Assembly (NCBI GenBank): GCA_038049695.1
Contig: CP142452.1
Coordinates: 106,897,001 to 106,961,000, forward strand
Direction: 5' to 3'
Source of the DNA: Cinnamomum chago
Taxonomy: Eukaryota > Streptophyta > Magnoliopsida > Laurales > Lauraceae
DNA: 64,000 bases
Part shown: one piece after another, positions 16,384-36,585 of the stretch
How positions within the stretch are numbered: the first letter of the stretch is position 1
How the letters are laid out: every line of letters begins with the position of its first letter
Notes under the pieces: model-generated
Told to the model about the DNA's origin: nothing
The model's database searches: none
The model's input: only the letters and a program-made list of their open reading frames with translations
Made by a program: the position numbers and the translations under genes

Positions 16384-16520
16384 GAGGAATTTACCAAATA
16401 AATCCCTGTAGGTCCCTATACCACTCATGGGGTCCCAAAAAAATAGTATTATTGGATTAGGTCCTCAAGGGCTGTATTTGTATTTTTTTTAGTATTTTGG
16501 CTCTATGGCCGATATCGGCC
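16384..16520 (+). repeat. MULE left terminal inverted repeat
   Basis: About 137 bp match the reverse complement of 26788-26924 with a modest number of differences. Shared blocks include ACCAAATAAATCCCTG, TAGGTCCCTATACCACTC and GGATTAGGTCCTCAAGG. The repeat ends inside with the 14-bp palindrome GGCCGATATCGGCC (16507-16520). A second palindrome follows at 16551-16564, 44 bp further in. Confidence 0.9.
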
Positions 16521-16939
16521 ATTGTATTTTTTTTTGTAATTTGGCTATATGGCCGATATCGGCCATTGACAGTTACCCCACTCACGCGCGCTGTGGCCCC
16601 TTTTTCATTTCGTTCGACCCTCACTCCCCCCATTCCCTTTCGTTTCTCTCTGTCAACAGTCTCCCCCCTTTCCAGTGGTCCCAAGCAGGTGGTCCCAAGC
16701 ACTTTGGCGCCAAATTTTCGAAGGTGGCTGGCATGGAGGTACGTTTCTTCCTCATTTCAACCATTTTTCTTTGTGCCTTGGATTTTGAATGAAGACGGGT
16801 TGTTCTAGGGTTTGGTTTGATGGCTGTTATTCTCTACTTCTTCTCCTCATCTTCCCATCTTCTTCTCATCTTCATTACCCATTGTGCAGACGTGATTTCT
16901 AGATTTCCAACTTTCAATTTGACATATTGAATTGTATAT

Positions 16940-17560
16940 GGCCGATATCGGCTATATTTTATAAATCTCCCCCAACTGAGGCAGTTTATGAATAGCATCT
17001 TCCCTTTTGATGCGCGTGACCTGTAGAATAATGGAGTTGCCATGGAATCTATTGTGACGCACAAATCGATTATTAAAGACCATTTCTGAGTTCCAGAAAG
17101 ATATAAGCATCAAGTAAAATGATTAAAAGCTTACAATTATGAACAAATATGAAGTAAGAGTCACAATCAGTTTGAATGCTTTAAGCACTATAATTGTTAT
17201 TGTTCCATAAGGTCTGGAGCAGTGTAACATACCTTCTAAAGGATGTTCTCATTGGTGATGTTACATTGGTGATTATACCATTAGGTCTGGAGCAGGAATG
17301 AGAACATCCTCTGTTGATGTTTACCTCTGGTAAACAAACTTCTAAAGGATGTTCTCATTCTTGGTGTCAGCTGTGACGGTTGTTATGCTAGTAAGCTTAG
17401 TATTGAATAATATCATGAGTAATTCATTCTACTGATTGATACACAACAAAAAACCATGATGTTAACTGGCAAATGGCCACTCCTAAAAACGGTTCTAAAT
17501 TTGATTTGTCAAAAGTAAGCCCACCTATATAAGGAATTCTACTGATTGGTAAGTAGGCTA
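16940..17560 (+). promoter_or_regulatory. Upstream region of the PMD-Ulp1 gene
   Basis: This region has a further GGCCGATATCGGC palindrome (16940-16952). It also has a set of direct and inverted repeats at 17205-17365, where 'aaggatgttctcatt' is repeated and also present as 'aatgagaacatcct', alternating with 'aggtctggagcag'. A TATA-like CTATATAAGG (17525-17534) lies about 35 bp before the chosen ATG at 17567. Promoter function is inferred. An alternative start is the two-codon exon ATGGAG|GTACGT at 16733-16738, which could also splice in phase. Confidence 0.4.
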
Positions 17561-17566
17561 CTCGAG

Positions 17567-20500
17567 ATGTCAAAGGGCCAGACTAGGCCGGGGGGCCATG
17601 GTTGTCCAATCCCTACTCTCAATATATGTAGGTGTCGGGCTCAAGGTGGCCCAAAGCACTTGGAGGTCCTGCACAATTTAGGCAAGTATTTACTATGCAA
17701 GAGAAAGTATTTGATAGTATTGGTGAACCTTATTTTTGAACTCACCAATTTAGACTTTGATAGATAGCATTGCATTAGATTCTTATAAAGCTAAATTCTG
17801 AACAAACGAGTGAATCATATATATTATAAAAAGACAAAAACGTCTCTTAATTTGTTCTACAGCATGCTATTGAGACTATGTAGCTCGCTATTTTTAGGTT
17901 GTGGCCCATCCAAGAGAAGGCCGAGAAGGCTAGGCAGGGTGGTAAAGGCTTGCAAAAATCTAGTGCGAATCCGACCTTGGGATCATACGAAAAAGAAATA
18001 GCGAGCTACGTATGTAAGACTCATCAGTCATCTCCCTCTCTCTTTCTCTCTCTTCCTGGCTTGTAAATAGAAGACAAAGCGATGTATGAGCTTTTTTTAA
18101 ATGATAATTGGTCGCGGAAACTACTGTATTCCACAGGTTTATGTGATACAATTTTTGTGACTGTCTTCCACTTTTGTTTGGTTGTTTATTTTAGTGTTCT
18201 TTTACTTATTCTGTCTTAGTATAAGGATTTATGACTTCATCAATGTACATGATCAGTGTCCTATTTAGAGTATCACATGGTAGAGGGTGGAATCTTGAAT
18301 AGAGTTTGATATTCTTTTGTAGGAAGGTGAAGGACAAGCCCCCAAGTCTCCGAATGTTCTACTATACAACCAATGCCTTCATGTGTCGGAGGGAATTCGG
18401 CAAGGAGAGGTATATTGTATTACACGATATCAATTACACATTTCAAAGTATCGATGCAAATTGTAATTTGATATATTCGTTTTGTACTTGCTAACCACAT
18501 TTGGTAATTGTTACGTTGCTAGGATTTTGGGCGGCTTAGATGCATACCAACCAATCCGGACCGAAACATATGGCAGCTAACAAAACAACAAAAGGCATAC
18601 GTGAGGCAGACGGGCCTCCATTACTTAGCAGAAATCGATCGCATGGTCATTGATCACGCGCTAATAACCGGTCTAGTCGAAAGGTGGCGCCCGGAGACAA
18701 ATACTTTCCACTTTCCGTCGGGTGAAGCAACTGTCACCCTGGAAGATGTTGCATACATCTACGGCCTACCCGTAGATGGCCCACCTGTGGCCGGACGAAC
18801 TTTCCCGGGGAAGTTCGTCGCGTCGGTGTGCGAGGAGGTTCTTGGCATCCGACCGGATAAGCGTGACTACCATGGTATAACAGTGAAGTTCAAGTGGCTT
18901 GAAGACAATTTTGCAACTGCCGAACTTGAGAAAAAAAAGAAACATAAAAAATACAAGGATTACGAGATCCGGGCAACGCGAGCCTATCTCTTCTTTCTAG
19001 TGTCCGGTCAGATCGTTTCGCAGACTACTGGTGCCCGTGGACCGGCCTACATACTAGAGCTGTTCAAAGAATTTAAACCGTATGCATGGGCACCGGCTTG
19101 TCTCGCGAATCTATATAGGATGTTGACCAATGCCTCTCGATGGGGTCCGGAGAAGTTAGTTGCTGTGGAAGAGGGGAAAAATAAGCAAGGTGAGCTTGAA
19201 GGGCACCTGTGCAGGACGCCAACCGGGCCTCTACAGCTATTACAGGTCTTTATTCTCATAGTGACTGTTAGTTTGAATTTTTTATTTAATTCGAACTAAC
19301 TCTTTATTGTGATGTAATCTGGTGCAGATATGGGCTTATACAAGGATGTCAATCGGAAGGTGTCCTAAGCCAAAAGAATCGTGGAAGGGGGACATACAAT
19401 TCCCACTGTGCAAGACATGGATGAAGAGGTTGCCTGAAAATCCACCACTCACCTCAGTCAAGGAGGTGAGAGGACAGTTAAACAATTTGAAAGTTGACGA
19501 GGTAAAACAAGAAATTGACTCGCTCCTTAGTTCGGTGTTCGATTATATGCATTCTATTTTGCTGAGATACTGGACTAACTGTTTCGTTGCTGATGTGTAT
19601 TGCAGTTCATATGGCAACCATATGAAGGTTTTAGATCAAAGTTTTTTTCAAAAGTATCTAAAGTAGATCGCACTCTCCTACATTCGTCCACTGTTTTGAT
19701 ATGGTATTGGATTGTCGAGCGCCACAACACTTGGCGTGTTATGAAACAATTCGGGCTCAAACAAATAGTCCCACCGCCTTTTACAATGCCCATCTTAAGA
19801 CGAGAAAGGACATTCAGGTCTGTTGTCGATTATGCGGCAACGATGGATAAGGATGTCGTGTCGACGTGGGGAGCAAGAGCCACTCTTGGACTTCAAGGTG
19901 AGGCTTGTGCTGCAGCTGCGCAGTCCGAAGAGTACATGGAATGGTATACGAAGAATACGTTGATGTTTATTGGTAGAGGAGAGGCAACGGAGCAGCCTGC
20001 GTCCGATGTCCCTGCATCTGATGTCCCCACGGCTGAGGTGCTTGCAGAGGAGACCCGCACTGAGGATGAGCCCACCATCCCACAGAAGCATGTATATCAA
20101 TTACACCCTATAAACACTAGTTCCTTGATTTCTTTTTTCAAACTGTCGCTAATTCAATTACTTCTTTGATCAACAGGCTCAAGACATTGTCGCACGCATC
20201 GAACGGAGCCTCGAACGTTCTGCACGTAGGAAAACGCCAATCGACAAGCTATCCATGTCAATTTCGAAGAAGCTAGCTAAGTTTAAGTCGGGTTTTGGGA
20301 CGAATTGGGAGAACTTCTCATTCGATGGATGCAGCAGCTCGGCGTCTGATAATGACGCCACGGAGAAGAAAATGTTGATCACAGTTAAGCATACCAAGAG
20401 GCCTGCGCAAAAAAGCCCGGCTAAAAAGACTAAATCTGCTAAAAGAAAATCCACAGTCGAGGAACCGAACCTCGTGAGCATAAATGCAGAGGGATCAGGT

Positions 20501-21720
20501 AGCAGCAGGGAACAACCCACGACTGAGCCAGCACTCCGGGAAATTGTTCAGACCCCACCAGTCAGCAGGAATTTGTTCGCATCCCCATTAACGGTCTCCA
20601 GTGAATCTGCTATGGTGGTTGCAGCGCCATTGGCCACCCTTGAGTCATTGGTATGGAGGATGAAACGGTTGCCCCGAATGCGCAAGATACCGTTGAAGTT
20701 TGAAGACTACACGCATGATATCGTTCGGAGCAACTATGTGCTGTCTGAACCCGACAAATTCTTCCTCAAAGGTTTTCTAGAATACTACGATGACAGGTAT
20801 GTTGGTTTAGTGTTGATCATGTTAATTTGTTTGATTGAAGTGCTTACGTGTGTTTGGACATATTCACTGTTACAGGAAAGATGAGCTTGGTGATGTCTGC
20901 ACATTGATCAAGGCAGATGATTTGAAGAGTGTCCTTGATGAGGGAACTTGGATGGACACTAACATCATTTATTATTACTTTGAGATATTGAGAATTGGGT
21001 GTGATTCATGCTTCATTGCCGACCCGAGTGTCTGTGTAAGTACAACCTAAACAATGGTTGGGTAAATCCTTTATTATATGTATATTGGAACATTGTACCC
21101 ACATTGATCAATTCAATGTATGCAGAGTTGGTGGCGCGATAGTGGTGACACAGCCGTCGAGGCAGTTTTTGGGAAGTACGGGCACAGGGTTTTGGACGCG
21201 AGGGAAGCGCGAACGCTGATATTCATTGTCTATCAGAGGTCACATTTCACTTTATTGGTCGGACTGGTTGATGAGAAGAGATGGGAGTTTTACAATAGCA
21301 TGGAGGGCGATCGGCGATCATTTAAACATGCGCTGAAGTTTGTAAGTTTTTCTTCCTTCATGCCAAGAGTCAGTTTATCTCGAACGCGTATTTCAAATTC
21401 TTCTGTCCATTGCTGACATTTAGACCCGATGTTTTATGTAGATGGGATGGTTGGCCGAATGGTATAGCCATTTTGGGTGGAGCGACCCATTTCTATGGCC
21501 ACTAGTTGAAAAGACGGACATCCCTCGACAGAACAATACGAGTGATTGTGGAGTATTTGCAATGGCCTTTGCCACTCACTGTGTCCACCGGCTTCCCATC
21601 GCCTTTAAGCAATCAGACATGCGTTACTTTCGAAGTAAAATAGTCGTGGAAATCTTCAAGCGGAGTTGGCAATTGAATGCTAATAGACTGGGCTTGACCC
21701 ACTTGGCATCACTCCCATGA
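17567..21720 (+). CDS. Transposon-borne plant mobile domain-Ulp1 cysteine protease fusion
   Basis: Ten exons were deduced from GT/AG sites and phase: 17567-17631, 17898-18009, 18323-18409, 18523-19245, 19328-19501, 19606-20091, 20177-20796, 20876-21035, 21126-21341 and 21442-21720. They give 973 codons. Residues ~65-460 form a plant mobile domain ('GLHYLAEIDR', 'LVERWRPETNTFHFPSGEAT', 'LEDVAYIYGLPVDG', 'LLQIWAYTRMSIGR'). Residues ~500-640 are low-complexity acidic repeats ('ASDVPASDVPTAEV'), then a Lys-rich putative nuclear localisation segment (~620-641). Residues ~690-973 are a C48/Ulp1 peptidase with His849, Asn866, Gln911 and Cys917 in 'RQNNTSDCG'. Ulp1 enzymes cleave SUMO from proteins; the usual acidic triad residue is Asn here. 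The first two exons are the least certain. No lesion is seen. Confidence 0.8.
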
Positions 21721-22104
21721 AGAATACGATCAGCCGGGAACTTTGAAAGTGGATTAGCCTGCATGTTATCAAATGTGAATCACTTCATAACTCAGATTGT
21801 ATAGAAAGAATGGTGGTTGTGGTGTTCATGATGATTTGTATAGAATTTGACATTCAAATTGTTCTAAATGGGTTGTATTTAGACAGGCTGTGTAGAATTT
21901 TCATTTGTATAGAATTTCATGGTTGTCTGTGTTTCTTGATGTCGCATAGTTGAAAACAGGCTGACTACAGCCTGTGTTTCTTGATGTTCAAAATGTTCTA
22001 AATTTTCTTGATGTTTCTTGATGTTCAAGATTTGTACAGGCTTCTCTGTGTTTCTTGATGTTCTAAATGACTACAGGCTTCTCTGTGTTTCTTGATGTTT
22101 CTTC

Positions 22105-22930
22105 CAAACTCAGCTTCCCTTAACTGAGGCTATAAAAAAAAGGACATGTACAGAATGGCCGATATCGGTCACAATATAGACCGATATCGGCCAAAATAAC
22201 AGTCTCAGGCACCCTTAACTGAGACTATGAAAAAACAGGACTGCACAGAATAGCCGATATCGGTCGAAATTATGACCGATATCGGTCATTCGCTGCAGGT
22301 CCTGTTTTTTCATACTCTCAGTTAAGGGTGCCTGAGACTGTTATTTTGGCCGATATCGGTCGTTATTATGACCGATATCGGTCATTCTCTGCAGTCCTGT
22401 TTTTTCATACTCTCAGTTAAGGGTGCCTGAGACTGATATTTTGGCCGATATCGGTCGATATTATGACCGATATCGGTCATTCTCTGCAGGTCCTGTTTTT
22501 TCATAGTCTCAGTTAAGGGTGCCTGAGACTGATATTTTGGCCGATATCGGTCGAAATTATAACCGATATCGGTCATTCTCTGCAGGTCCTGTTTTTTCAT
22601 ACTCTCAGTTAATGGTGGCTGAGACTGATATTCTGGCCGATATCGGTCGATATTATGACCGATATCGGTCATTCTCTGCAGGTCCTGTTTTTTCATACTC
22701 TCAGTTAAGGGTGCCTGAGACTGTTATTTTGGCCGATATCGGTCGTTATTATGACCGATATCGGTCATTCTCTGCAGGTCCTGTTTTTTCATACTCTCAG
22801 TTAATGGTGACTGAGACTGATATTCTGACCGATATCGGTCGATAGTATGACCGATATCGGCCGTAAATTCATACTCAGGATCATTTAACTGAGTAAAAAA
22901 CAGGTGATGTAGAGTAGAATGGCCGATATG
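22105..22930. repeat. 96-bp palindrome-bearing tandem array with orientation flip
   Basis: Units of 96 bp (one of 95), marked by 'ggtgcctgagactg' or variants, recur at 22326, 22421, 22517, 22613, 22709 and 22805. The leftmost part (about 22105-22255) carries the same unit in reverse ('cagtctcaggcacccttaac'), so the array turns around near 22265. Sixteen CCGATATCGG palindromes occur, in pairs whose starts are 22 bp apart where measured (for example 22159/22181 and 22254/22276). The array lies between the converging 3' ends of the two MULE genes. The unit length, a multiple of three, keeps frames open on both strands, but these do not look like genes. Confidence 0.95.
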
Positions 22931-23354
22931 CTCTCCTTCAATGCATACTTGGTTTCCATAGAAAGATTTGATTTTTTTATATTTATTTTATTAAAACTGT
23001 GGTTGTTACCTGAAAGATTTATGTAGGTGAGATTTGTGCTGAGGTAATTATCTTCCTGTGATCCAAGATGTCCATTCATTATGTTCACTCGAAGAGGTTC
23101 AACAAGCAGCTACAGATTCGATGTTCACATAAAGCGTGCACAATTAAAAAAGGATCACATATCATTTATGAAATACAGTAATACAGGACTCCCAAAATAC
23201 ACAATTACAGTCCACATTTGCATATACATAAAAACTCCCTTGATTAATACATCCTAAGGACACCTATCTGTATACATCATTAAGGGTCTTCTTAAAAAAA
23301 CTGCAACCAGAATACATGCCAAAATGAAAATACATTCTATGCTGTTCTAATTCG

Positions 23355-25906
23355 TCAACTGAGCACGGGAGGATTGCGACAACTTCCACGGTTGTGGCCT
23401 CTCCCCTTGCAATTTGAGCACGTTACTGCCCTTCGAACACGACCAATATCTTCAGTCCGAATCCTGTTCTTTTTCGGGCGTCCGGGCTGTTTACTGGAGA
23501 TTGGTGGAATAACTCTCAATTCGGCTGTGTGCTCCCATTGCTTGCTGTCACGGGTAGCATGAATCACTTCACTGTACGTTGTACGATACGTGCTCGCAAA
23601 ATACCAATGCTCACAGAATTCGTATGGATCGTAGTTTCTCATTTTCATTGCAGCCAATGCATGGCAACACGGGATACCCAATATCTCCCATTTCCGACAT
23701 GTGCAGGATTTCCGTTCGAGATCAACAACGTCAACATACTCCGCAGACTGAACCTGGAATTCTACAATGCCAGCCACACGAACATGCAATCGGCGAGCTT
23801 CATCCATTTCTTGACTGAGAACTTTCTCCGCATGCGGTGTAAGACGAGTTGTTATGCTTTCAGACTGAAGATGCCGCTTTTGATAGAAGTCCATTAACTT
23901 TGCTCGTATCTCCTCAACTTGTTTCGTAATGGGCAGGACTCGCGTGTCTTTTAGGAGACTATTAGTGCACTCGGCTGCATTGCAAGTTAGCATGTCGTAC
24001 CGACGGCCTTCTATGTATGCATTTGCCCACCGTTGCCGCCCAATTGCATCAATGTAATTGAAAGCCTCCTGGCTAACTGCACGGATATCTGTCATATAAG
24101 CCTCGTACTCGCATGGTCTGTATGACGTTGCTGCACGCCAAAATTTCATCACGATTGCCCCGTCACTGAAAGCAGCTTTGATGTTCTCAGCAATGTGACG
24201 GCAGCAGTAACAGTGCATTGCATGCGGTATGGTGTTCTTCAACGCTGGAATGAGACCCTTCTGCCGGTCTGAAACAATAGTAAGGTTAGTTGGCTCTCCT
24301 AGAGATATGGACAAGTTCGCAAGGAACCACTCCCAGCTATCGCGCCGCTCGGCTTCGGCAAAGGCAAAGGCGATGGGAAGTAGCTTATGGTTGGCATCAT
24401 GCGTCACGGCAACAAGCAACACACCTGGATACTTGCCTCGGAGGTGTGAACCGTCTACAGCAATCACTGGTCTCAACGAAGACGTGTAAGATCTTATGCA
24501 CGGTCCGAACGCCCAAAAAAATCTTCTGAAACGGTCATCCGAAGTGGTATCTATGTTTGTCACAGTGCCAGGGTTAGTCAACTCAAGTTCCTTACAATAA
24601 CGGGGTAGCAGCTGGAAGGATTCTTCATATGATCCTCGCACAGTACAAAGTGCCATCTCCTTTGCTATATAAGCCTTTCTGTAACTAATTATTGAACCAA
24701 ACTCCATCTGATAGTCATTCATGATCTCCTTCGGTTTCAAATTCACATTCTGCCTGACCCGTTCCATGATGAACTCTCTAATAAGCGCCGAGGTTGCCTG
24801 TTGATGTGCCATGCCCATCAGTGGCTTTGAGCATCGATGGTTAGGATTGTACGTCCTAACTTTAAATTGTGGTCCTGATTCGACAATCGAAGCATGAATA
24901 CGCCATGGACAATCCTGATCTTTGCATCGTGCAGTCACTTTGGTCATGTTGGTCTTCAAATGTTTAAGAGTGAAGTTACCGTATATTGCAAACTTCGCCA
25001 ACGTATTCCGGAACATCTGTCGATCAGGAAAAACACGGCCAATCCACATCTCTCGTGCGGAGTTGTTGCCAAATTCCATTTCCATGTCATCAGGCTCCAT
25101 TTTATCATCAAATTCAACTTTTGGAATTTCATTAGACCGTAGAACGGTATTGGTTTGATTGACTTCATCCCTGCAACATTCGGCCTTGAAGATTGGTTTT
25201 GAATGAAGCTGTCCGTTAGAGGGATGTCGGTTAAGATGGATATCATCAGCACGCATCATCCCAAGGTCGATATGACCATCTAACGCCTCATTGCATACAT
25301 CATCATCATCCCGCACAGATGGATATTGCATGTCTGTGTCATCGCGGAGATCAGCGGTGGGTTGTTCTTGAGGACTTGTTGATAACTTCACTTGTTCCCT
25401 CTTCAAACTGGCTGACGACCTCCTTGGCATTTTTGGACTCTTAAATCCTACTGCGGTCCTTCGTAACCTACAATGAATCGGGGCATAAATAAGCAAGTGC
25501 TAATATAAATAATTAATTTCGCATTTAAAATTTAGTGAGACAATTAGTAGGCATACCTGTCCTCTCCCCCTATACTTTCATTGTTGTTCGGACTATTAGA
25601 GACGTACAAGTATATCCCATTCGTTTCATTTCCAGATGCTTTGAACATAAGACGAACATCATTATCATCGTCAATGCTTGCCATTGAAAATGCCCGTCCG
25701 TTGTGATGAAGGTATTGCATGCTTAAATTCTGGATGGCTGTATCCCAATTGGATGATACCATTGCTTCGTTAGCCAGGCATTGATAAGAGATGTCTGACG
25801 ATAAATATTTCATTTTTTGTTTTCCTCCACTGTACACCGGACGGCTGATGTCAAATTGAAAGTCACCGTCATAGTGGAATATGAACAACACCTCTCTGTC
25901 TGACAT
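23355..25906 (-). CDS. MuDR/MULE transposase
   Basis: Two exons on the minus strand, 25906-25557 and 25467-23355, joined in phase across GTATGC and TTGTAG, give 820 codons. Residues 1-~110 are a PB1-like N-terminal domain ('EVLFIFHYDGDFQFD', 'VYSGGK'). Residues ~255-335 are the MuDR DNA-binding zinc region ('MWIGRVFPDRQMFRNTLA', 'CKDQDCPWRIHAS', 'NPNHRC'). The DDE catalytic domain shows Asp455 in 'VDGSHLRGKYPG', Asp517 in 'VSDRQKG', the CYCCRHI metal-like motif and Glu616 in 'NAAECTNSLL'. A SWIM zinc finger (Cys705, Cys707, ~Cys717, His719) and a C-terminal CCHC knuckle (Cys800, Cys803, His808, Cys813) follow. All hallmarks are intact. It would cut and join the element's terminal repeats in the nucleus. 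Confidence 0.93.
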
Positions 25907-26787
25907 GCTATAATTAAAACACAGGAAAATTATGAAGATATCAGTAAAATGTAGGCAGATTTAGGATGACAATTACAACAGATCGGTATTAGACCCATTT
26001 CATTTGTCCCTAGCTGCTATTCAAAAAATATTTAGACCGTATTCCACCTATTCTCCTATTGTTCATCAATCAGCAAGACAACCAACTCCAACTGGATGAG
26101 ATACTGGCGTTGAAGTATCCATGTTTGCAAGATCAATATAGAACAATATACAAACATACAAACTAGACAATAACATTTATGGATTTACTGATGCACACTA
26201 AACATCAATAAAATGGAATGCACGACCCACCATAGCTCCAGCTGCTGGATTGAACAGAACCCTACTACACAGAATGTTTCAAAATGACGCTCTCTCAAAC
26301 AGTTCTAGGGTATTCATGATGAGTGTGGATTTTCGACAGTTCTAGGGTGTTAACAAGAATGAAATAAAGGAGAATGAGTACTCGATTGATGAAAGTGGGT
26401 TTTTTACAAACCCTTCAAACAGAAAGTTCTTCTATAAGCATTAAAGAAAGCCTGGTTTAGAGATCGGGTACTCTAATGATGACAGAAGATTTTACAGAGA
26501 TCTAGGGTTAACAAGAATGCATTAATGGAGATAAATCAATGTTACGATGTCACATTAGAGAAGACAGTGCATTAAGATGTGTGTTTAATGTACAAACCTA
26601 CCTCTTAATGAAGTCCAACAACCGATTCACAGAAGTTTTTTTACATGGTTTCTGAAAGGGAAAAAATCGCCATACAACAGTCGAGGAGAGGAATAGGGAT
26701 GTCGCATAAATGAGAGTTGTGAGCAAAACACAATCGGGACGAGAGAAATAGGGATGTCGCATAACGGCCGATATCGGCCAATATGAC
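25907..26787 (-). promoter_or_regulatory. Upstream region of the transposase gene
   Basis: About 880 bp separate the transposase ATG from the right terminal repeat and hold no convincing coding frame. A donor-like GTAGGT on the minus strand near 26600 could mark a 5'-UTR intron. 'cagttctagggt'-like elements recur at about 26300, 26340 and 26495. Two GGCCGATATCGGCC palindromes at its outer end may bind transposase or contribute to promoter control (inference). Confidence 0.35.
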
Positions 26788-26924
26788 GGCCGATATCGGC
26801 CATAGAGCCAAAATACAAAAAAAAATATAAATACAGACCTTGAGGACCTAATCCGATAATACGGTTTTCTTGAGACCCCATGAGTGGTATAGGGACCTAC
26901 AGGGATTTATTTGGTAAATTCCCC
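26788..26924 (-). repeat. MULE right terminal inverted repeat
   Basis: Inverse partner of 16384-16520. Its inner edge is the palindrome GGCCGATATCGGCC at 26788-26801. Another copy lies at 26766-26779, exactly 22 bp further in. Outer bases read CAGGGATTTATTTGGT then AAATTCCCC, followed by ten T residues. Confidence 0.9.
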
Positions 26925-36203: not shown

Positions 36204-36585
36204 TCTCTATTAATCTCTCTTTCTTAGTTGCCATCTGTGCCACTTGCCCACTTACTGTGACACATTCATCACTGCTGTGACACGTTCATCATTGTTGTTC
36301 CTATTGCTGTTATGGCTTTCTCCACTGGTGTTGCTTCTCCTTCATTTATTATTTCCAATATTTCAAATCTTGTATCCATCAAACTGTGATCGCTTCTCTA
36401 TTAATCTCTCTTTCTTAGTTGCCATCTGTGCCACTTGCCCACTTACTGTGACACATTCATCACTGCTGTGACATGTTCATCATTGTTGTTCCTATTGCTG
36501 TTATGGCTTTCTCCACTGGTGTTGCTTCTCCTTCATTTATTATTTCCAATATTAAAAATCTTGTATCCATCAAACTGGATCGCAA
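36204..36585 (+). repeat. 191-bp tandem duplication in the copia leader and gag start
   Basis: 36204-36394 is repeated at 36395-36585. It includes the presumptive gag start context 'gttatggctttctccactgg' twice (ATG near 36312 and at 36503). In the first copy the frame meets TGA about 26 codons in; the second leads into the long gag frame. Confidence 0.9.

What the first reader, a model, noticed from the sequence alone, without database searches (positions are those of the whole stretch)
16507..26801. Palindrome CCGATATCGG in pairs 22 bp apart at both ends and in the centre of the MULE
I count 21 copies: 16 in the central array, 3 near the left end and 2 near the right end. Starts in pairs are 22 bp apart in the array (22159/22181, 22254/22276) and at the right end (26768/26790), and 44 bp apart at the left end (16509/16553). 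That is about two helical turns, so a dimer or tetramer could bind on one DNA face. I found none outside the element. A transposase or PMD-Ulp1 recognition site is the natural hypothesis.
Basis: partly seen in the sequence, partly recalled or inferred. Interest (0 to 1): 0.85.

Follow-up and report, generated by a model that had tools for sequence, protein, structure and literature searches.

The report
Family-specific palindrome arrays in PMD-carrying MULEs
A young plant jumping gene carries 21 identical copies of a 10-letter mirror-symmetric DNA word in fixed pairs, and several related jumping genes that carry the same kind of extra protein have different words of their own in similar places, which looks like a private address label that such a protein could use to keep its own element switched on.

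Summary
In detail: 21 CCGATATCGG in the window, all in one 10.5-kb TIR Mutator-like element (16384-26924), where shuffles give 0. Genome-wide there are 565 pairs at 22 bp against 1 for the reversed control. In 30 siblings, 210 of 214 adjacent distances up to 35 bp are 22. The 10-mer varies 40-50-fold less than its flanks, or 11-15-fold among distinct sequences.

The main new result: the motif is one of a series. Of 9 other PMD loci fetched (host-type excluded), 8 carry repeat arrays with other words: GGTTCGAACC, GGGATATCCC, TGTTCGG-N10-CCGAACA and variants, GATATCCTA/TAGGATATC. Six exceed the control tiles on a palindrome score; L042 and L048 do not and rest on 33-bp tandem arrays. In five elements the array lies between the convergent 3' ends of the PMD and transposase genes. 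Two distant transposase lineages share this layout.

Best reading: target arrays for an element-encoded, family-specific DNA-binding factor, most likely the PMD(-Ulp1) protein, working like VANC anti-silencing of VANDALs. Binding and anti-silencing are inferred, not shown. New variant of a known kind: PMD in place of VANC's DUF1985.

The parts
16384..26924 (.). whole TIR Mutator-like element (family A)
   Evidence: TIR pair I2; ends and 9-bp TSD fixed with siblings C1:20.55 Mb and C1:36.68 Mb
16384..16528 (+). left terminal inverted repeat, contains site 16509 (126 bp from end)
26780..26924 (-). right terminal inverted repeat, contains site 26790-26799 (126 bp from end)
16509..16562 (.). left subterminal pair of CCGATATCGG, 44 bp apart
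   Evidence: same layout (126, 170) in siblings L035 and L036
16942..16951 (.). single CCGATATCGG in the left leader region
   Evidence: sibling L036 has it at the same place, L035 14 bp nearer the end
18523..20166 (+). PMD (plant mobile domain, PF10536) coding exons; intron borders not determined
   Evidence: E 7.2e-43, 4.2e-4 (under the family's cut-off) and 6.8e-13 on three ORFs
20153..20881 (+). linker ORF between PMD and Ulp1 (no family hit)
21108..21717 (+). Ulp1 (Peptidase_C48) exons
   Evidence: PF02902 E 2.1e-9 on 21442-21717; 21108-21413 has no Pfam hit and is assigned by tblastn hits beside Ulp1 in L041 and L042
22109..22893 (.). central array: 8 palindrome pairs (22159-22860), 22 bp within pairs, about 96 bp per unit, between the 3' ends of two convergent genes
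23358..25499 (-). MULE transposase main ORF, 714 aa (DBD_Tnp_Mut, MULE, SWIM)
   Evidence: 62 genomic copies scored, 94-100% identical, 35 of 62 without stop codons
25547..25960 (-). ORF upstream of the transposase ORF, probably its first exon
   Evidence: ORF, no Pfam hit; 46% identical counterpart upstream of the C8 transposase
26768..26799 (.). right subterminal pair, 22 bp apart
   Evidence: 5 of 30 sibling loci keep only one exact site here, and 3 of 30 have a gap over one 22-bp unit

Best explanation
The palindromes are the private target sites of a DNA-binding factor encoded by the element itself, most likely the PMD(-Ulp1) protein. It would bind each 10-bp palindrome as a dimer and each 22-bp pair as a two-fold symmetric dimer of dimers on one face of the helix. 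A dense central array plus a pair at each end would recruit enough protein to keep the element's noncoding DNA free of silencing marks, so that transposase is expressed, while no other sequence is touched. This is how VANC proteins act on VANDAL elements. Shown here: anatomy, family specificity, fixed spacing, constraint on the motif, and a different palindrome with a different spacing in several other PMD-bearing MULEs, in one case at the homologous end position. Inferred: that PMD is the binder, the tetramer, and the anti-silencing effect.
For: Specificity: 565 pairs against 1. Constraint: 0.006 variant per site in the 10-mer against 0.26-0.31 in flanks over 217-220 pairs, 0.023 against 0.26-0.35 over 56 distinct ones, given an exact partner and at most 4 mismatches. 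Motif switching: GGTTCGAACC pairs 21 bp apart 1021 against 0; TGTTCGG-N10-CCGAACA 1463 against 2; single GGGATATCCC 1721 against 246. Homologous place: in the C8 element the end pair (first copy degenerate) starts 126 bp from the end, as here, but with its own word and 33-bp spacing. Layout: array between convergent PMD and transposase genes in the window, C8, L038, L046 and L048. PMD as common factor: families A and D have transposases only 23-27% identical with different DNA-binding domains, yet both have PMD (33-36%) and arrays; a PMD gene without a transposase hit (L047) has no array. Between A and C the transposase DNA-binding domain stays 77% identical while the later PMD exon falls to 44% and the linker to 34%. 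Helix phase: six spacings that I chose (22, 74, 21, 53, 33, 52) share a phase, simulated p = 0.0025. Print: Ikeda et al. 2017 speculated that MULE-captured PMD serves TE anti-silencing (PMC5418596, passages).
Against: No binding, methylation or expression data. The 149 residues before the transposase's DNA-binding domain are only 22% identical between A and C, and the first PMD exon (60%) is about as conserved as the whole transposase (62%), so the transposase could also carry the changing specificity. Motif differences track overall divergence of both genes. Host PMD proteins MAIN and MAIL1 promote silencing, the opposite sign. The window PMD exon shows no DUF1985 similarity and no PDB relative. 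On my palindrome score L042 and L048 reach only 3, the same as the highest of six control tiles. Many of the 50 GGGATATCCC places listed are isolated. One PMD locus (L040) has no array. No MULE-without-PMD control could be run. The sites in the TIRs are also where a transposase would bind.
Confidence: 0.55

Rival explanations
1. The palindromes are transposase binding sites. The TIR and subterminal copies are the cut-and-paste recognition sites, and the central array is a decoy or enhancer that titrates transposase or helps synapsis.
For: Sites lie inside both TIRs at the same distance, 126 bp, from each end. The transposase N-terminal region is highly variable between families with different motifs (22%). 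Motif class follows transposase divergence as much as PMD divergence.
Against: Most copies (16 of 21) are in the middle of the element, where cut-and-paste is not known to need them. Array copy number varies among siblings. The DBD_Tnp_Mut domain is 77% identical between two families with different motifs. Elements with a quite different transposase (FAR1 hit in L038) have the same layout.
Confidence: 0.22
2. The array is a regulatory block between convergent genes (insulator, shared terminator or promoter element) bound by a host transcription factor, and the end copies are promoter elements.
For: In the window, C8, L038, L046 and L048 the array sits between convergent 3' ends, and in the window the end pairs lie upstream of both genes.
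Against: Host factors do not explain why families have other palindromes with other spacings, hundreds to over a thousand times per genome, or why the word at the homologous end position differs together with the array.
Confidence: 0.1
3. The array works as RNA or single-stranded DNA: hairpins, or tandem and inverted repeats that feed small RNA production, the palindrome being a by-product of repeat expansion.
For: The array is rich in direct and inverted repeats and lies where two convergent transcripts could overlap. [quoted passage not shown]
Against: If folding mattered, flank positions should co-vary. At position 1 next to the 10-mer in family A they are complementary in 28% of 499 sites against 51% expected by independence; the other five positions lie near or below expectation except position 4 (61% against 49%). 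Constraint falls off within a few bases of the palindrome. Families B and C show an excess at position 1 on few sites: 71% against 56% of 24, and 76% against 48% of 21, the latter nearly vanishing among distinct sites (50% against 46% of 10).
Confidence: 0.08
4. Selfish or neutral satellite expansion with gene conversion; the word is conserved because the copies are young.
For: Siblings are young (94-100% identical transposases) and the arrays expand and contract.
Against: In the same copies flanks vary by 26-31% and the 10-mer by under 1% (2.3% among distinct sequences). For family B, 1021 of 1902 pairs within 2 mismatches are exact, by a truncated Poisson estimate about 3% change per site, against 31% in the 11-bp spacer of 50 listed exact pairs. 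The end copies are not part of any array.
Confidence: 0.04

Closest known systems
VANDAL elements and VANC anti-silencing proteins of Arabidopsis (Hosaka et al. 2017, PMC5735166, abstract and results section read; Sasaki et al. 2023, PMC10398659, abstract and passages)
   Same: Mutator-like transposase plus a faster-diverging accessory protein; short family-specific motifs dense in noncoding DNA as tandem repeats; repeats gained and lost between close copies; related families have different motifs.
   Different: Here the accessory protein has a plant mobile domain, not DUF1985/DUF287; motifs are palindromic (the paper's motifs YAGTATTAY and AGTTGTCC are not); the element keeps long TIRs whereas VANDAL TIRs are described as degenerated.
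[quoted passage not shown] 2022, which is not held)
   Same: Ulp1 joined to a MULE accessory protein; the review says they recognise motifs in noncoding regions of their own kind and cause hypomethylation.
   Different: KIU proteins are VANC-type; here PMD replaces the VANC part, and PMD elements without detected Ulp1 have arrays too. Recalled, from no call: the 2022 abstract names helical periodicity of motifs as a determinant, which would match the phasing seen here.
Host PMD proteins MAIN and MAIL1 (Ikeda et al. 2017, PMC5418596, passages and section 11; Nicolau et al. 2020, PMC7156037, passages)
   Same: Same domain. 25 of 26 genes down in all main, mail1 and pp7l backgrounds carry a short 'DOWN' promoter motif (the motif was not enriched in the pp7l-2 list alone), so a link between PMD and a DNA motif has been proposed before. 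Ikeda et al. speculated that MULE-captured PMD serves anti-silencing.
   Different: They are silencing and expression factors of the host; a PMD gene of this genome without a transposase hit (L047, taken as host-type) has no array.
Transposase binding sites in TIRs of Mutator elements (start of the abstract of PMC3310237, search listing)
   Same: Sites inside both TIRs at equal distance from the ends.
   Different: Three quarters of the sites are central, in an array of variable length, not at the ends.

Membership tests
Mutator-like element (MULE) | MULE transposase domain | tested here: met
   PF10551 E 3.7e-18, DBD_Tnp_Mut and SWIM on the 714-aa ORF
Mutator-like element (MULE) | long TIRs and 9-bp target-site duplication | tested here: met
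   TIR 92% complementary over 143 bp; 9-bp TSDs in two siblings, runs of T in the window
VANDAL/VANC anti-silencing system | family-specific short motif, dense, as tandem repeats in noncoding DNA | tested here: met
   different motifs in related elements
VANDAL/VANC anti-silencing system | encodes a VANC protein with DUF1985 | tested here: not met
   No DUF1985 in the 8 window ORFs scanned (E up to 0.01) or in the PMD exon (E up to 10); the genome search for PF09331 found none, but its controls did not ring either. PMD exons of three D elements show similarity under the cut-off to the same part of DUF1985, E 0.0018, 0.032 and 0.11
VANDAL/VANC anti-silencing system | non-TIR or degenerate ends | tested here: not met
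   long TIRs
VANDAL/VANC anti-silencing system | accessory protein binds the motif and causes hypomethylation and activation of its own family | not testable with these tools
   needs DAP-seq or EMSA and bisulfite sequencing
Transposase binding site of Mutator TIRs | present in both TIRs at equivalent positions | tested here: met
   126 bp from each end
Transposase binding site of Mutator TIRs | confined to the ends | tested here: not met
   16 of 21 sites are central
PMD-carrying MULE described before (Ikeda et al. 2017) | PMD gene inside a MULE | tested here: met
   PF10536 in the element. The paper describes PMD as fusion with the transposase in several grasses and Amborella; here it is a separate convergent gene

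The most novel reading that the evidence does not exclude
The plant mobile domain is a second class of transposon-encoded, sequence-specific anti-silencing DNA reader beside VANC/DUF1985, perhaps its remote homologue. PMD-MULE families diversify by switching palindrome and helical spacing together, at the ends and in the central array, giving many orthogonal address systems in one plant genome. Host silencing factors such as MAIN and MAIL1 would then be the host side of the same domain's history.
Probability: 0.4. Interest if true: 0.87.

Novelty: new variant of a known kind. Interest (0 to 1): 0.74.

Why it matters
PMD is called a domain of unknown function (PMC8616336, passage), and its use by MULEs for anti-silencing was a speculation (PMC5418596, passage). 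The arrays give exact, short, testable target sequences: about five palindrome classes with defined spacing, each tied to a PMD gene, so binding and epigenome effects can be tested directly. If right, anti-silencing by motif arrays is not special to VANDALs and uses at least two protein domains, and PMD proteins become candidates for sequence-specific epigenome tools. In the listings of my searches of the held library I saw no paper on such arrays in PMD-MULEs (several listings were capped; preprints and most subscription journals are not held).

Tried and rejected
Hairpin or RNA structure: tested by flank co-variation and not supported in family A; families B and C have few sites and show some excess, so not excluded there. 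Conservation at the right end as evidence of constraint: not useful, because sibling tiles there differ by only 0.1-2.7%; the array flanks were used instead. Unit-by-unit variability with a fixed period: motif against rest 0.13/0.17 for A and 0.14/0.17 for C, where units drift by a base or contain indels; 0.04/0.08 for B, 0.02/0.11 for L043, 0.05/0.28 for L048, 0.02/0.30 for L046. The motif was read from the same units, so this is partly circular, and I do not lean on it. Structure of the PMD exon: single-sequence AlphaFold model with mean pLDDT 36; not used for a fold search. PDB by sequence: no match. DUF1985 genome search: nothing, with silent controls, so uninformative. TIR of the other families: only C8 showed a clear relative of this element's end, 23 of 28 letters; the far end of the C8 element was not found in the stretch fetched. 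I took L046 and L048 for retroelement-type PMD controls when I chose them; both proved to be PMD-MULEs with repeat arrays, so they became further cases and no retroelement control remains. Helical phase: twelve spacings seen in siblings were listed; 101 and 134 (8 cases each) are out of phase and 209 (9) and 55 (8) only roughly in phase, so phasing is good within pairs and main units, not for every unit junction.

Counts with their bases: sibling loci analysed 30 (the window's own copy, L005, included) of 62 scored transposase copies; 62 were scored of 4189 first-look candidates. PMD loci fetched: 10 (of 133 listed match stretches), chosen by me to differ in score and frame, plus the window. 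Palindrome score (most frequent word of half-site 5-7 with gap 0-12): window 21, C8 21, L041 19, L037 5, L038 5, L043 5, L046 5, L042 3, L048 3, L040 1, L047 1; six window tiles of 8 kb outside the element have best scores of 2 or 3. So six of the nine loci exceed the controls and L042, L048 and L040 do not; the arrays of L042 and L048 rest on Tandem Repeats Finder (33-bp units) and, for L048, on kinship with L046. L043 is a relative of L038, L041 of L037 and L046 of L048, so the independent motif classes are fewer than the loci. Host-type for L047 is my label: one open 597-aa ORF and no tblastn hit to the transposases or Ulp1 exons used as queries.

Full report
Observation. CCGATATCGG occurs 21 times in the window and only inside one element; shuffles give none, and there is no one-mismatch copy. 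Sixteen copies form eight pairs in the central array, three lie near the left end and two near the right end. The distances of 22 and 44 bp are as stated.

The element. It is a Mutator-like transposon of 10,541 bp (16384-26924), with TIRs of about 143 bp that are 92% complementary. Two siblings show 9-bp target-site duplications, and here both flanks are runs of T. On the plus strand are exons of a plant mobile domain (PF10536) followed by exons for an Ulp1 peptidase (PF02902). On the minus strand is a 714-aa transposase ORF with DBD_Tnp_Mut, MULE and SWIM domains. The two genes converge, and the array lies between their 3' ends. That PMD and Ulp1 form one protein is inferred from strand and order; no transcript was available. 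The family is young: 62 transposase copies scored, 94-100% identical, 35 of 62 without a stop.

Is the motif specific and constrained? Genome-wide there are 1904 copies against 437 of the reversed word, and 565 pairs at exactly 22 bp against 1. The 50 pairs listed, all on contig C1, fall in six clusters; five of these (41 pairs) contain a family transposase. The sixth, at C1:95.41 Mb, has an array like the window's but no listed transposase. Of the 50 single copies listed, 3 are isolated. In 30 sibling loci there are 495 exact sites. Of 214 adjacent distances up to 35 bp, 210 are 22; there are also 32 (twice), 35 and 21. Next to an exact partner the 10-mer varies by 0.006 per site and its flanks by 0.26-0.31; among 56 distinct sequences the figures are 0.023 against 0.26-0.35. 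That comparison requires at most four mismatches in the second site, so it somewhat understates variation there. In 135 of 210 pairs the dinucleotides around the two sites form a perfect two-fold symmetric frame, GG-site-TC and GA-site-CC, as expected if the pair is one unit bound by a symmetric complex.

The end sites. The first palindrome starts 126 bp from the left end and, read inward from the right, 126 bp from that end. Siblings L035 and L036 have the same left-end pair.

Other elements, other words. PMD genes of this genome were listed by HMM (133 match stretches, 117 candidates scored). I fetched ten of these loci. L039, completed with L044 and L045 (C8:28.05 Mb), is a relative of the window element: transposase 62% identical, 64% by local alignment. 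Its array between the convergent genes contains 20 GGGATATCCC, mostly 33 and 52 bp apart. One further exact copy lies near its end, with a degenerate copy (one letter off) 33 bp before it. This end pair starts 126 bp from the end, exactly where the window element has its own word; the end itself is placed by a 28-letter match of 23, and the element's other end was not found. L037 and L041 carry GGTTCGAACC pairs 21 bp apart in 74-bp units. L038 and L043 carry TGTTCGG-N10-CCGAACA in 33-bp units. L046 and L048, 92% identical in PMD, carry the variants GTTCGGC and CTCGGC in 33-bp units. L042 carries GATATCCTA/TAGGATATC in about three 33-bp units. Genome-wide the words searched are abundant: 1021 pairs of the second kind against 0, 1463 of the third against 2, and 1721 single GGGATATCCC against 246, many of whose listed places are isolated. 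L040 has no array, and no Ulp1 or transposase in the 4.9 kb fetched. L047, a PMD gene in one open frame without a transposase hit, has none. On a simple palindrome score six of the nine loci other than L047 exceed the six control tiles of the window (highest 3); L042 and L048 only equal the highest, so these two rest on their tandem arrays.

Place of the arrays. In the window, C8, L038, L046 and L048 the array lies between the converging PMD and transposase genes. In L041 and L042 it lies downstream of Ulp1. In L043 it lies downstream of PMD, and no transposase was found there. In L037 it follows the last PMD-gene ORF that I could identify. L038, L043 and L046 have second arrays elsewhere.

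Which protein? Families A-C and family D have quite different transposases (about 21-28% identical for A or C against D; DBD_Tnp_Mut in A, a FAR1 hit in L038) but share PMD (33-37% identical; B against D 35-39%), and A, C and D share the convergent layout with arrays. No Ulp1 was found by tblastn in the stretches held of L038, L043, L046 and L048, so PMD is the common partner of the arrays. Between A and C the transposase DNA-binding domain is 77% identical, while the later PMD exon, the linker and the Ulp1 exon fall to 44, 34 and 56%; the first PMD exon is 60%. This resembles VANC, which is more variable than the transposase VANA (PMC5735166). Against this, the transposase region before the DNA-binding domain is only 22% identical, and the motif follows overall divergence of both genes.

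Helical phase. Within-pair and between-pair distances of families A, B and C (22, 74, 21, 53, 33, 52; chosen by me) share a phase near 10.5 bp (maximum R 0.93 over periods 10.2-10.8; simulated p = 0.0025). Some junctions in siblings (101, 134) do not fit.

Constraint in family B. Allowing up to two mismatches raises the pair count from 1021 to 1902 (control 8), about 3% change per site by a truncated Poisson estimate, while the 11-bp spacer of the 50 listed exact pairs differs from its consensus at 31% of places.

Mechanism. I therefore read the arrays as landing sites that let an element-encoded protein find its own family only. The known system of this kind is VANC. VANC21 binds YAGTATTAY, arrayed at high density in noncoding regions of VANDAL21, and expression of VANC removes methylation from its own family (PMC5735166, results read). 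A review states that VANC genes with a Ulp1 domain do the same for their own kind (PMC13317346, passages). For PMD, Ikeda et al. [quoted passage not shown] Nicolau et al. 2020 found a short promoter motif in 25 of 26 genes commonly down in the main, mail1 and pp7l backgrounds (PMC7156037, passages). Three D-type PMD exons give weak matches under the cut-off to the same part of DUF1985, the VANC domain (E 0.0018, 0.032, 0.11); the A, B, C and L047 PMD exons give none. That is a lead to common origin, not a result.

What is shown and what is not. Shown: anatomy, abundance, family specificity, constraint, spacing, another motif at the homologous end position of a related element, and co-occurrence with PMD. 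Not shown: binding, the identity of the binder, tetramer formation, effect on methylation or transcription. A MULE-without-PMD control could not be run because the search machine did not answer.

Verdict. A real, strongly non-random and probably functional feature. It works like the VANC target arrays but is not a member of the VANC system by its defining protein domain and ends. New variant of a known kind.

Noticed in passing
C1:95409606-95418066 (pairs listed): An array whose eight listed pair spacers match the window's in order with one letter changed, reverse-oriented, but with 7.8 kb instead of about 3.9 kb to the end pair and no listed transposase there: probably the closest sibling, interrupted.
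   Followed up: partly
[quoted passage not shown]
   Followed up: partly
L038 5949-6773 (-), L046 3445-4380 (-), L048 3273-4163 (+): Weak DUF1985 matches inside the PMD exon at the same profile positions (E 0.0018, 0.11, 0.032): possible remote kinship of PMD and the VANC domain.
   Followed up: partly
window 26764-26785: 3 of 30 sibling loci have a gap over exactly one 22-bp unit, leaving a single palindrome at the right end.
   Followed up: no
window 16384-26924: CpG observed/expected is 0.81 in the element against 0.56 in the rest of the window: young, or kept free of methylation.
   Followed up: no
L041 1-916 and other GGTTCGAACC arrays: The word GGTTCGAACC resembles the tRNA B-box core (recalled, from no call); possible TFIIIC binding at these arrays was not tested.
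   Followed up: no
L040: A PMD locus without array, Ulp1 or transposase in the 4.9 kb fetched: a decayed element or a host gene.
   Followed up: partly
L037 6178-7251 (+): A Transposase_32 (PF20167) ORF between the PMD gene and a transposase fragment in a GGTTCGAACC-type locus.
   Followed up: no
window 36204-36583: Two 191-bp tandem copies, 97% matching, outside the element.
   Followed up: no
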